Assembly (NCBI GenBank): GCA_038893495.1
Contig: JAWARJ010000001.1
Span: 744,001 to 808,000, forward strand
Source: Thermoproteus sp.
Lineage (GTDB): Archaea > Thermoproteota > Thermoprotei > Thermoproteales > Thermoproteaceae
DNA: 64,000 nt
Direction: 5' to 3'
This document shows, piece after piece, positions 292-5,139 of the stretch. Numbering within the stretch: position 1 is the stretch's first letter; each line of letters opens with the position of its first letter. The notes below the pieces were generated by a model. The model was given only the letters and a program-made list of their open reading frames with translations. It had not been told where the DNA came from and made no database searches. A program made the position numbers and the translations under genes.

Positions 292-1986
292 ATGAACAGT
301 TCACTATTATATATATTCTACTTCCTTTTCTTGATAACTTTTTCATTTGCTATTTCATCACTAATTATATTAAAGAAAACTAGAAGAATGTTATTAGCAA
401 TGATCATATGGGGTCTCTTTGTATGGCTGATGTATTTTATTGTATTAGAACCTTCATGGATTTTAGCTAACGGAGACCTCATATACATGCTTAAAATCGT
501 TAATTATACCGTAGCTGATGGGCGTTATCCCTTTGAAAATCAAGAGCTACAAATAATAAGACCTAATTACCTTATGTACCCAACTCCATTCCTAATCCAA
601 GCAATTCTCTCTATTGTAACTGGGATACGTCCTGAAATGCTAATATACATCCCAATTACAATGTTTGCAACATATACTATAGTGATTATTGTGGTAAGTT
701 TGTTAATGAGGAACTCCCCTATTAGTCTACTCCCGTTTATAGTGTTGCCGCTCTTCAACTTTCTTGCTATCAACATGACAGCATACTTTGTATATTCACA
801 CATATCAAGAGCTTTAATAATTCTTTCCTTATACTTTATCTTTACAAAACGCACTCAAGTTGAACATCGTTACCTCCTTTGGATTCAAAGCATCCTCTTA
901 ATAGTAGCTACTGTGATGGGACATTCTCAAGAGCCGATAACGCTCGTAGTGCTCCTCATTATCTTCACAATATTTTTCTTAAGTCTAAGAATTGTTATAA
1001 GAAATAGTAAAGCGCAGTTGTATCGTGGCACTTCATTATTTATACTATTTACAAGTCTTTTTATTGTAATTCTACTGTTATATGATATCTATGTTGCAAT
1101 GGATATTTATAAAGGAATTATTACATTCATTTATAACTTTATAAACGCATTGTTAGGCAGAGCCTCTATAGAAGTAGCTATGGAGAAGAGTACTATAGCG
1201 CAAACTATTCTTACACCTTTAGAGTTTAATCTAATGTTATTAGGCTATCTTAGTACTGTTGTCTACATCGCAATAAAATTATTTAGTTTCCTTATCTTAG
1301 CTGTTAGGGAAAAAGATTATCAATGTCTATCCTATATATCCACAGTGATAGTCTATAGCGTTATTACTGTAATACCATTATTGACTCCAGGAATAGGCAC
1401 AGATCTCTTCTGGAGACCTATATGGGCATTATTCTCATTCACTTCCATAGGTTCAATTACTTTTTGCAAATATGATGAAACTGGTAGAGGTATGTGGAAA
1501 CGTTTGCTAACTATTTTTGTTACTATTATCATAGCGTTTCTATTTCTTTCTAATATAATATATCTTCGCCTCCATCTAATCCCTTCTGAGGTATATATAC
1601 ATGAATCTAAAACTATTAGTATACTATACCAAACTTTAAGTTATAGTAATTTTTTAGATTTATTTAAAGAGAGCACTATCTACATTATTGATACACCAAC
1701 ACAACCAGCGTACGAAATCAGTAAAGCCTTCTTCTTGATACTGCAGAGCAACCCAAAATACAATTTAATATTCTCGAATTGTAGTATTCAAAGTTATAGT
1801 TTAACATACTTTAACGGAATTATTAAATTAAGAGGATATCCACGCGAAATGTGTATAGATTATTCTAACTTCAAAACGACCCTACAAAGAGGTAGCATAG
1901 TCATTACAGATGAGTACGAATTTTCTAACATCTTTTCATTAATATTTAAAATAACACATATCAACGTATACTTCGTTACAAACTAA
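292..1986 (+). CDS. Polytopic membrane protein of a glycan locus (possible GT-C-like or polymerase-like protein)
   Basis: This 564-residue protein has roughly ten to twelve hydrophobic segments over residues 1-430, then a soluble C-terminal domain of about 130 residues. No signature motif is certain. The architecture (many membrane helices, then a soluble tail) resembles GT-C glycosyltransferases or Wzy-like polymerases, and its neighbours are glycosyltransferases, so a role in glycan assembly at the membrane is inferred. Its base composition is strikingly AT-rich (many aat, ata, tta codons) against the GC-rich flanking genes, suggesting transfer. It follows the upstream glycosyltransferase by 19 nt and appears to be in the same operon. 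Confidence 0.7.
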   Translation: MNSSLLYIFYFLFLITFSFAISSLIILKKTRRMLLAMIIWGLFVWLMYFIVLEPSWILANGDLIYMLKIVNYTVADGRYPFENQELQIIRPNYLMYPTPFLIQAILSIVTGIRPEMLIYIPITMFATYTIVIIVVSLLMRNSPISLLPFIVLPLFNFLAINMTAYFVYSHISRALIILSLYFIFTKRTQVEHRYLLWIQSILLIVATVMGHSQEPITLVVLLIIFTIFFLSLRIVIRNSKAQLYRGTSLFILFTSLFIVILLLYDIYVAMDIYKGIITFIYNFINALLGRASIEVAMEKSTIAQTILTPLEFNLMLLGYLSTVVYIAIKLFSFLILAVREKDYQCLSYISTVIVYSVITVIPLLTPGIGTDLFWRPIWALFSFTSIGSITFCKYDETGRGMWKRLLTIFVTIIIAFLFLSNIIYLRLHLIPSEVYIHESKTISILYQTLSYSNFLDLFKESTIYIIDTPTQPAYEISKAFFLILQSNPKYNLIFSNCSIQSYSLTYFNGIIKLRGYPREMCIDYSNFKTTLQRGSIVITDEYEFSNIFSLIFKITHINVYFVTN

Positions 1987-2006: not shown

Positions 2007-2195
2007 TTCGTAGCGGTAGCTACCGTGTTGGGCATACTGACGTGGATAGGATACACCCTCGCCACCACGCCCCCGTCGAAGCCCATAGAGGAGATGGAAA
2101 AACAGATAGAGGAAGAGCTGAAGAAGCTGGAGAAGGAGATCAGTAGCTCCTCCTCCGAGACCTCTCCACCACAGCCCTCCCACCCCTCGCAGTGA
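2007..2195 (+). pseudogene. C-terminal half of a split small membrane-protein gene
   Basis: A GC-rich reading frame begins abruptly at TTC (2007), encodes a transmembrane helix (FVAVATVLGILTWIGYTLAT), then a charged helix rich in Glu/Lys and a Ser/Pro tail, and stops at TGA 2193-2195. It has no start codon, no ribosome-binding site and no promoter. Its sequence continues exactly where the N-terminal fragment at 3535-3654 on the other strand breaks off; joined, the two give a two-helix protein of about 103 residues like a small crenarchaeal protein family that I recall being annotated loosely as a transcriptional regulator. The best explanation is an inversion between about 2007 and 3534. Confidence 0.7.
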
Positions 2196-2203
2196 GCAGA
2201 TAT

Positions 2204-2317
2204 TTAAAAGAAGTTCGGCAGGGTGACCACGGCGCCGTCTCGCCTCAGCCTCTCCGCAAGCCTCCACGCCAGTCGGGGACGTCGGACGCCGGGCGTAAGC
2301 CAGATAGACCTTACTCA
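2204..2317 (-). pseudogene. 3' remnant of an unidentified GC-rich gene
   Basis: Minus-strand codons from about 2317 to the TAA at 2204-2206 spell a sensible protein C-terminus (LAWRLAERLRRDGAVVTLPNF) with GC-rich host-like codon use. The frame is closed upstream by a TGA, and no start is present. It is convergent with the small-gene C-terminal half that ends at 2195. It may be what is left of a host gene whose 5' part was replaced by the AT-rich block. The family cannot be named from 37 residues, and chance coding-like sequence cannot be excluded. Confidence 0.35.
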
Positions 2318-2434
2318 ACCTAGCCCGCCTCAGCCAGCCCTACTTGAAGACAATAAAATACTCACATTATCTTGCCTATAAACCTTAATTCTAGTTCTTC
2401 ATCTTATAATCACAAAAATCTTAAGTGTAGAATT

Positions 2435-3523
2435 TTAATCTAATAAACTTGCTAAAAGCAAGGCACTCTTTTCTGCAAGATGTTTACGTACAACATATTG
2501 ATATCCGTATGGAGAAATATCCGGTGTCGCTAAGAGTATATCTGCAAGCTGTTTTCCATCTTCATCATACTGGGGATCGTAATTAATAATTGGCGGTATT
2601 ACTCCCTCGTGCTTAAGATAAAGATCTTTATTCAATCTCGCAATAACAAGTTTATTTAAAGCTAGAGCCTCAAGCTCAATTTGACTTATAATCCCTAATT
2701 TAAATTGACCAATAACTATGTCACTATTTAACATTTTCCAAAGTATTTCAGATCTGCGCAACAGCTTGTTATGTAGAACAACTTCTACTCCTAGATATGC
2801 AAATCTTCTTAGTATCATTTTTACAAATTCTATATAAGGCCTTCTTCCCCATATTATTATTTCTATTTTTAAATCGCGAGGATCTAGGTAGCCGCCTCTT
2901 AATGCTTGATAAAGTCGATAGATAAAAATGTGAATATTTTTATTTTCATCTATACGTGCAGGAATCAATACTTTTTTATTTTCTTTTGAAACAATCCGAT
3001 GAAGCTTGCCGATGTTCGACAAAAATAAGGGATCAACAGGGTTCGGGAGATATAGACAGGGTAGACCATAATATAGCAAATCTGGTGTACTACATAAATA
3101 CAAAAGGTCCTTATTACTAGTTTTAGCTAGCCTAAAAACTAATTTCTTAAGCCTATTCATGTCGCGTAGATCGGATCCATGGAACTCGACGAAGACTTTT
3201 CTAATGTTCCTAACTCGCAATAGCCTACTAGCTAAGTGAAGAACTTTTAATGAAGCACCTATATTTAAGTGAATGACCCAATCTTTGTTTCTTTCTTTAG
3301 AAAGAAATGCTATAATCATTTGATATAGCTCGTCAATACCTTTATAATAGTGTATTTGCACACTAAGGGGGTTTCCATTAATAGGATAACCATAAAAAAG
3401 AGGCATGTATGTAACAGAAATATCAACAGGTAGGAAGAGTACTGCTCTACGTCCTAATTTTTTAAACCCATAGGCGAGATAATACGGAATGTTAGCTACG
3501 TAGCCTACCTCAATTAAATTCAT
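2435..3523 (-). CDS. GT4-type glycosyltransferase
   Basis: This 362-residue protein has GT-B architecture. The N-terminal half contains a VEFHGSDLRD segment typical of the acceptor domain. An inter-domain NPVDP motif lies near residue 180. The C-terminal half has IGQFKLGIISQIELEALALN, the position of the donor-binding E-x7-E region of GT4 enzymes. It is AT-rich, like the membrane protein at 292-1986. The ATG at 3523 overlaps (ATGA) the stop of the truncated upstream fragment. It now reads against the other glycan genes, but if the 2007-3534 segment is flipped it would lie about 30 nt downstream of the membrane-protein gene in the same direction. The sugar specificity is unknown. Confidence 0.8.
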   Translation of the reverse strand: MNLIEVGYVANIPYYLAYGFKKLGRRAVLFLPVDISVTYMPLFYGYPINGNPLSVQIHYYKGIDELYQMIIAFLSKERNKDWVIHLNIGASLKVLHLASRLLRVRNIRKVFVEFHGSDLRDMNRLKKLVFRLAKTSNKDLLYLCSTPDLLYYGLPCLYLPNPVDPLFLSNIGKLHRIVSKENKKVLIPARIDENKNIHIFIYRLYQALRGGYLDPRDLKIEIIIWGRRPYIEFVKMILRRFAYLGVEVVLHNKLLRRSEILWKMLNSDIVIGQFKLGIISQIELEALALNKLVIARLNKDLYLKHEGVIPPIINYDPQYDEDGKQLADILLATPDISPYGYQYVVRKHLAEKSALLLASLLD

Positions 3524-3654
3524 TTGCGGTACCCCGCCGTAAGCTGTACGACGAGTTGGCTCCAGGGTGAGAGGAAGACGGGCCAGCCGTATATGGCTAT
3601 TCCGGCGACGCTTCCTGCCGCCAGCGCTATTCCCACTGCTTGGTCCCTCCTCAT
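3520..3654 (-). pseudogene. N-terminal half of the split small membrane-protein gene
   Basis: Starting at ATG 3654, the frame encodes MRRDQAVGIALAAGSVAGIA, a transmembrane helix, and the start of a second segment ending ...SQLVVQLTA (to 3535). It then runs into four unrelated codons and a TGA at 3520-3522 that overlaps the glycosyltransferase start. The promoter is intact: a TATA-like stretch at 3670-3682 lies about 22 nt upstream. The missing C-terminal half is on the opposite strand at 2007-2195. In its present state it would make a 44-residue truncated peptide, and it may still drive transcription into the glycosyltransferase at 2435-3523. Confidence 0.7.
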
Positions 3655-3669
3655 ATGCCTTTAATCTAA

Positions 3670-3682
3670 ATATTTTATAACC
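3670..3682. promoter_or_regulatory. TATA box shared by divergent leaderless genes
   Basis: The sequence ATATTTTATAACC is centred at about 3676. It is 24 nt from the GTG of the plus-strand flippase (3700) and 22 nt from the ATG of the minus-strand small gene (3654). No other A/T-rich box lies between the two starts, so the one element probably serves both directions. Confidence 0.55.
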
Positions 3683-3699: not shown

Positions 3700-5139
3700 G
3701 TGCCTAGCCGTCTGGGGGAGTCCGCGGCGTTGGGCGTCGGGCTCGGCTATTTGGGGACTGTGGTGAACTACATGCTGGCAGCAGCCTACGTCGTGGTCTT
3801 GACTAGGTTCATCCCGCTTGAGGACTACGGCGTTTACAACTCCCTTGCAGCCCTCCTCGGCCTTTTTTGGCTGTTCCTGCCGAACTTCGGGATCTATATC
3901 GCCGTGATGAGGGAGGGGGCCGCGGTTTTTGCCAGGGGCGGCGATGTAGCGCCCTACTTCGCGGCTTTCCTCTTCCTCCAGTCAATGTTCACCGTCGCCT
4001 ATGTGGTCATCGTCCTGGCGGCCTCGCCCTTCTATCTGAGGCAGTTCCCCGAGAAGTTCTGGCCTATGGTAGCGCTCATCGCGGCCTACACGGTGCTCCA
4101 GGGGCTGGCCAACGCCCTCTCCGCATACCTGTGGATGATCGGGCGCTATACGACGCAGTCAGTGGGCGTCGTCCTGTACAACCTGGTCTTCCGCTCCCTC
4201 GAGGTGGGCCTCATCGTGGCCTTAAGGGACGTCTACGCCATCCCCATATCCATGCTGGTTGGGATTGTAGCCAACGTGGCCGTATATCTCAGGGCCGTGA
4301 GACGCGTCCCCAATCCCCTTCTGGGGGTCCCACTCCTGAAGTCAAGCTTTTGGAGGTTTTTGGGGCTGGGAGTGCAAGAGTGGGCCATCGACTACGGCGC
4401 CTCTATCGCCGGTAACGCATCTACCTACTTGATTTTCCACTTTCTTGGCCCCTCGGCGGCGGGGATCTACGGGCTGGCCGCCTACATGCTGGGATTCGTG
4501 ACGTCGTTTTCAGGCTCCGTCTATTCCGTATACATCGCGAGGGCATCGAGGTCTTTGAGGTCCGTCTTGCCGATCTCTCTAGACTACGCAAGGACGGCAC
4601 AAGCCGTCTCCTCTTTCCTGTCCGTCTCAACAGCGTTGGCGACACCGCTTTTGCCTATCCTCGGCATCGTACACGGCCAGTACGTGGGGGCCGTTCCGTA
4701 CGCCATGGCTCTATTCGGCTCGGCGGCGTTGGGCTCCGCGGTCGCGGTCTTCAGAGGCCACTTTTGGGTGTCGGGCAGGGGGTGGCGCTCGGCCGCGGCT
4801 ATTATGTCCGGCCAAGCCGCCGGGCTGGCGGCGCTGGCCCTCTCAGCGCCGCGGATCGGCTTGTTCTCCGCCGTCATCGCAAACTACGTAGCCGCGTTGG
4901 TCCCGTTGGCGTTCTTCTTAAAGTGGGACTCCAGCTTGAGACGGGGAGTTCTGCCAGCCTTCGCCGCCTCTGCGGCTCTGTCCTCGTTCCTGTACTTCCT
5001 CTGGCCTCTTGCCCAGCTCGCGGCGCTGGCCGCGGTGGCGTTGCTACTCTACTTCTACAAGCCCCTGCCCCGCCCCGTGCTCGAGCAAGTCCCCGAGCCA
5101 CTTAGGTCTCTCATCAGGCCGTTCGTGCAATCCATATAG
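3700..5139 (+). CDS. Wzx-like polysaccharide flippase (MOP superfamily)
   Basis: This 479-residue protein has about 12-14 hydrophobic helices. Its N-terminus (GYLGTVVNYMLAAAYVVVLT, then RFIPLEDYGVYNSLAALL) is typical of the polysaccharide_synt/Wzx family, in which the first helices carry the FG.YN motif. Such proteins flip lipid-linked oligosaccharides across the cytoplasmic membrane. It starts at GTG 3700, 24 nt from the TATA centre, which fits a leaderless transcript. Codon use is GC-rich, unlike the AT-rich glycosyltransferases just upstream, so it belongs to the resident genome. It fits the local glycan-assembly context; the substrate is unknown. Confidence 0.85.
   Translation: MPSRLGESAALGVGLGYLGTVVNYMLAAAYVVVLTRFIPLEDYGVYNSLAALLGLFWLFLPNFGIYIAVMREGAAVFARGGDVAPYFAAFLFLQSMFTVAYVVIVLAASPFYLRQFPEKFWPMVALIAAYTVLQGLANALSAYLWMIGRYTTQSVGVVLYNLVFRSLEVGLIVALRDVYAIPISMLVGIVANVAVYLRAVRRVPNPLLGVPLLKSSFWRFLGLGVQEWAIDYGASIAGNASTYLIFHFLGPSAAGIYGLAAYMLGFVTSFSGSVYSVYIARASRSLRSVLPISLDYARTAQAVSSFLSVSTALATPLLPILGIVHGQYVGAVPYAMALFGSAALGSAVAVFRGHFWVSGRGWRSAAAIMSGQAAGLAALALSAPRIGLFSAVIANYVAALVPLAFFLKWDSSLRRGVLPAFAASAALSSFLYFLWPLAQLAALAAVALLLYFYKPLPRPVLEQVPEPLRSLIRPFVQSI

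What the first reader, a model, noticed from the sequence alone, without database searches (positions are those of the whole stretch)
2007..3534. A 1.5-kb inversion appears to have split a small membrane-protein gene and flipped a glycosyltransferase
The last 63 codons of a two-helix protein lie on the plus strand from 2007; its first 40 codons lie on the minus strand from 3654 to 3535. Inverting 2007-3534 joins them in frame (...QLTA then FVAVATVLG...). The same flip places the minus-strand AT-rich glycosyltransferase directly behind the plus-strand AT-rich membrane-protein gene, with its start about 30 nt after that stop, restoring one operon. Both breakpoints lie next to GC-rich near-palindromes (CGGTAGCTACCG at 2014-2025; GCGGGGTACCGC on the minus strand at 3537-3526). 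It could be an accident or an invertible switch of surface glycan genes.
Basis: partly seen in the sequence, partly recalled or inferred. Interest (0 to 1): 0.72.

Follow-up and report, generated by a model that had tools for sequence, protein, structure and literature searches.

The report
Small inversion broke a spare gene
In this heat-loving archaeon (genus Thermoproteus) a 1.5-kb piece of DNA has flipped over, cutting a spare copy of a conserved small membrane-protein gene in two and turning a sugar-transferase gene around; nothing marks it as a genetic switch, so it looks like an ordinary genome accident.

Summary
The inversion is real. Rejoining the minus-strand 5' part (3654-3535) to the plus-strand 3' part (2007-2195) gives a protein that aligns through the join (QLTA|FVAVA), with no residue lost, to intact 85-100-residue two-helix proteins in nearly all Thermoproteaceae and many other Thermoproteota. 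No homologue found is normally one half alone. The host has a second, intact copy 965 kb away, so the broken gene is a spare.

The switch idea fails its tests. In recombining register the junctions share no base at the crossover; inverted matches within 50 bp are chance-sized; the "palindromes" are ordinary for this window; breakpoint DNA is not repeated in the genome; no recombinase lies nearby. The split copy has one of the two longest end branches in the family tree, the other being a stop-containing pseudogene: a decaying gene.

The "restored operon" is plausible but unconfirmed: the only relative with both genes has them in the opposite order.

The parts
2007..3534 (.). inverted segment, 1528 bp; breakpoints 2006/2007 and 3534/3535, the small-gene junction fixed to about one base by homology
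   Evidence: homologues align without gap or missing residue across the join; DNA matches start at 2007
3535..3654 (-). first 40 codons of the split small two-helix membrane protein
   Evidence: profile match positions 1-40, E 3.2e-12
2007..2195 (+). last 62 codons and stop of the same gene
   Evidence: profile match positions 30-90, E 1.1e-24
2435..3523 (-). AT-rich glycosyltransferase gene (group-1-like), intact, 362 aa, carried by the inversion
   Evidence: 38% identical over its full length to a gene in G004; 3 of 4 aligned family members match Pfam Glycos_transf_1 (best 2.1e-5)
292..1986 (+). AT-rich multi-spanning membrane-protein gene just before the left breakpoint; intact
   Evidence: 37% identical to a gene next to the glycosyltransferase homologue in G004
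3520..3654 (-). truncated 44-codon frame made by the inversion; its TGA overlaps the glycosyltransferase ATG (ATGA, 3523-3520)
   Evidence: and the sequence itself
3673..3680 (-). TATA-like box (TTATAAAA) retained upstream of the 5' half, 18 nt before its ATG; intact homologues have theirs about 20 nt before
   Evidence: comparison of upstream regions
3700..5139 (+). GC-rich polysaccharide flippase gene, divergent from the 5' half; right flank, not part of the inversion
   Evidence: Pfam Polysacc_synt, 32.3 bits, over cut-off

Best explanation
In this Thermoproteus lineage a 1.5-kb stretch at the border between an AT-rich glycan-gene island and GC-rich DNA broke at two points without shared sequence and was rejoined the other way round (two-break end joining). 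Before it, the membrane-protein and glycosyltransferase genes ran in one direction and converged on an intact copy of a small two-helix protein gene, which diverged from the flippase. The flip inactivated that copy; a second copy elsewhere made the loss bearable, and the two halves have begun to drift. The glycosyltransferase was cut off from the island's reading direction but landed behind the broken gene's promoter, its start overlapping the truncated frame's stop, so it is probably still expressed, by promoter capture. Shown: the inversion, the breakpoints, absence of repeats, the second copy, drift, the promoter-like box and the ATGA overlap. Inferred: end joining, one-time event, expression from the captured promoter.
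For: Join in frame with no residue lost, matching homologues in 17 of 19 Thermoproteaceae genomes. Intact second copy in the same genome at C1:1710969, in the same gene context as in G004. No base identity from -3 to +3 around the crossover in recombining register; longest inverted match within 50 bp is 7 nt, reached by 30% of shuffles. Breakpoint DNA not repeated in the genome, apart from the second gene copy. Six substitutions at 39 conserved positions, joint highest of 30 sequences; end branch 0.71 against a median of 0.11. TATA-like box in about the same place as in intact homologues. Truncated frame and glycosyltransferase overlap by ATGA.
Against: No reads or second strain were available, so a misassembly or a polymorphic population cannot be excluded directly. 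Drift is modest: both halves remain open and differences are still mostly at third codon positions, so the break is not ancient, and relaxed constraint may have begun before it. The only relative with both AT-rich genes has them in the opposite order, so the ancestral order is uncertain.
Confidence: 0.82

Rival explanations
1. A reversible invertible switch: a site-specific recombinase flips the segment and so alternates expression of the small membrane protein and of the glycosyltransferase.
For: The segment carries a surface-glycan gene, lies in a glycan locus, and each orientation would link the glycosyltransferase to a different promoter. The genome encodes two serine-type and one tyrosine-type recombinase-like proteins. 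Minority inversions occur in a population of the related Pyrobaculum oguniense (PMC3558965).
Against: No inverted repeats or shared core at the crossover, which tyrosine and serine recombinases normally need; the recombinase-type genes lie more than 700 kb away; the split gene has lost conserved residues. Two of the three P. oguniense inversions are described as bounded by inverted duplications, which are absent here.
Confidence: 0.04
2. Misassembly: the two junctions are artefacts of joining sequence the wrong way.
For: Reads were not available to check.
Against: Misassembled inversions usually sit between inverted repeats, of which there are none; the genome is one contig, 99.99% complete; the conserved-site substitutions in the split copy suggest a really non-functional gene.
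Confidence: 0.06
3. The inversion was made by a mobile element or by recombination between repeats that have since been lost or eroded.
For: The locus is patchy, with an AT-rich island, a GC-rich apparent gene remnant (2196-2340) and a gene order different from that of G004.
Against: No residue gained or lost at the small-gene junction, where an element or target duplication would leave a trace; no repeat of the region elsewhere in the genome.
Confidence: 0.08

Closest known systems
Population inversions of Pyrobaculum oguniense TE7 (PMC3558965)
   Same: Inversions in a member of the same family, Thermoproteaceae
   Different: Those are 22-173 kb, present in a minority of cells (17-35%), and two of the three are described as bounded by inverted duplications; this one is 1.5 kb, without repeats, with one end inside a gene
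Invertons / phase-variable DNA inversions (bacterial surface-gene switches; e.g. PMC11892184)
   Same: A short inverted segment next to a cell-surface glycan gene, changing which promoter faces it
   Different: No flanking inverted repeats, no recombinase nearby, a coding gene broken and drifting
Uncharacterised small two-helix membrane protein family of Thermoproteota (motif W[VI]GY[AT]LATTPPPKPIEE)
   Same: The joined protein is a member by sequence, end to end
   Different: This copy is split and has lost conserved residues (L25P, P64S, E73Q in alignment A1)

Membership tests
Invertible DNA switch (inverton) | inverted repeats or shared crossover core at both ends | tested here: not met
   no identity at the crossover; 7-nt chance-sized match within 50 bp; none listed linking both ends
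Invertible DNA switch (inverton) | recombinase gene nearby | tested here: not met
   Resolvase and Phage_integrase matches only at C1:1888574, 1468437 and 1476564; the inversion is at about 746000-747500
Invertible DNA switch (inverton) | both orientations present in a population | not testable with these tools
   no reads or second strain held
Small two-helix membrane protein family | full-length alignment with the conserved W(V/I)GY(A/T)LATTPPPKPIEE block | tested here: met
   joined protein aligns end to end, with S for one P of the block
Small two-helix membrane protein family | one uninterrupted reading frame | tested here: not met
   halves on opposite strands, 1.3 kb apart
Glycosyltransferase group 1 (GT-B) | match to the family profile | tested here: inconclusive
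   the window protein itself has no Pfam match; its 3 aligned relatives match Glycos_transf_1, best 2.1e-5

The most novel reading that the evidence does not exclude
A repeat-less inversion has rewired surface-glycan gene expression in a hyperthermophilic archaeon: it moved a glycosyltransferase from the island's operon to a conserved promoter, with translational coupling to the truncated frame, and was kept because that expression was useful, or still flips at low frequency.
Probability: 0.1. Interest if true: 0.5.

Novelty: new member of a known kind. Interest (0 to 1): 0.22.

Why it matters
It is a clean, base-resolved example of a small inversion without repeats in a hyperthermophilic crenarchaeon. 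Because homologues fix the small-gene junction, it records a join with no coding base lost and no microhomology; how such archaea repair double-strand breaks is described as still unclear (abstract of PMC12019639). Beyond that it is a local accident in a variable glycan locus.

Tried and rejected
A scan of genome contigs with the joined protein alone found nothing; repeated with the alignment it gave 337 relatives. GC-rich palindromes as recombination sites: rejected on frequency. The glycosyltransferase in viral contigs: no relative. The region in phage records: no match. Sequence searches against solved structures gave nothing useful; a single-sequence AlphaFold model of the glycosyltransferase was too poor to use (mean pLDDT 42), so no fold search was run. 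Phylum searches for other genomes holding both AT-rich genes found only G004. Codon-position counts did not separate the split copy clearly from intact ones.

Full report
Observation. Minus strand 3654-3535 gives 40 codons and plus strand 2007-2195 gives 62 codons and a stop. The joined protein aligns to homologues in many genomes with no residue missing or added at the join (QLTA|FVAVA). DNA matches in about ten relatives begin exactly at window base 2007. Each half alone is found by the family profile (E 3e-12 and 1e-24). An inversion of 2007-3534 is by far the simplest way to put the two halves on opposite strands in this arrangement.

Host. The window is G000:C1:744001-808000 of a one-contig genome of 1,995,394 bases. 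Genus mates include contigs whose lengths match Thermoproteus sp. AZ2 (13,523 and 6,214 bases) and Thermoproteus sp. CP80 (59,941 bases), and a 1.84-Mb genome whose size fits T. tenax (PMC3189178). The host is therefore most likely a Thermoproteus species. The size of G004 (1,936,063) fits T. uzoniensis, from memory only.

The gene. The small protein occurs in 17 of 19 genomes of the family, mostly as one intact gene of 85-100 residues, and 337 relatives were found across Thermoproteota and related archaea. It has no Pfam or NCBIfam name above cut-off. In the family the only strongly partial matches are the window's own two pieces and a degenerate copy with stops in P. oguniense (G014). The host has a second intact copy at C1:1710969, in the same gene context as the single copy of G004. 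The split copy is of the other subtype (YGWxVFxSPW), like the T. tenax copies in glycan regions. It is a spare.

Breakpoints. Current junctions, in recombining register: plus strand GTCCAAAT|TTCGTAGC and minus strand TTACGGCG|GGGTACCG. They share no base from -3 to +3. The longest inverted match within 50 bp is 7 nt, reached by 30% of shuffles. Nothing at the breakpoints is repeated in the genome except the second gene copy. Perfect 12-bp palindromes number 31 in the window; the right-hand one is imperfect (2 of 6 pairs fail) and spans the junction, so it would not have existed in this form before the flip. Site-specific recombination, and homologous recombination between inverted repeats, are therefore unlikely. 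The signature fits two breaks rejoined without homology; this mechanism is inferred.

Age and decay. The split copy departs at 6 of 39 conserved positions, the joint highest of 30 sequences, including a proline in the first helix. Its end branch (0.71) is second only to the P. oguniense copy with an internal TAG (0.76); the median is 0.11. Yet both halves remain open and differences are still mostly at third positions. The loss is real but not ancient, and relaxation may have begun before the flip.

Consequences. The glycosyltransferase is intact and 38% identical over its full length to one in G004; relatives match Glycos_transf_1. After the flip it lies behind the 5' half and its promoter: TTATAAAA at 3680-3673 is 18 nt before the ATG, and intact homologues have a similar box about 20 nt before theirs. 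The truncated frame stops at a TGA that overlaps the glycosyltransferase ATG (ATGA, 3523-3520). Such an overlap can arise by chance, so expression from the captured promoter is a prediction.

Operon claim. Only G004 among the 300-398 Thermoproteota genomes searched has both AT-rich genes. They are adjacent and co-directional there, within a similar run of glycan genes, but ordered glycosyltransferase then membrane protein. Gene order in this locus has therefore changed in at least one other way, and the ancestral order at this spot is not confirmed by comparison.

Switch or accident. Defining features of an invertible switch that could be tested (repeats, nearby recombinase) were not met. Two orientations in a population could not be tested. 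In the related P. oguniense, minority inversions of 22-173 kb exist, two of them bounded by inverted duplications (PMC3558965), unlike this case.

Verdict. A confirmed, ordinary small inversion that broke a spare gene and may have given a glycosyltransferase a new promoter.

Noticed in passing
G002:C1:1179684 and 1211764 (L029, L030): The genome whose size fits T. tenax has two copies of the small gene 32 kb apart, identical over the first 73 residues but with different C-terminal ends, as if a gene conversion had copied the front part.
   Followed up: partly
G014:C1:1783379 and 1773039 (L143, L144): P. oguniense has two extra, degenerate copies of the same small gene (internal stops), one near glycan genes: extra copies seem to die repeatedly.
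   Followed up: partly
L006:1635 onward (L029:7939-8838): In the T. tenax-sized genome one copy of the small gene is followed at once by a gene starting MNYVVVIPTLNEREAIGRVIEE, which looks like a polyprenol-phosphate sugar transferase; a hint of function for the uncharacterised family.
   Followed up: no
window 2196-2340 (-): GC-rich stretch ending ...AWRLAERLRRDGAVVTLPNFF*, which reads like the tail of a broken gene between the small gene's end and the glycosyltransferase.
   Followed up: no
L028:3299-16524 (window start and upstream): A run of glycosyltransferase genes mostly at 32-47% GC, in a region otherwise near 60%; similar in content but not in order to the G004 locus.
   Followed up: partly
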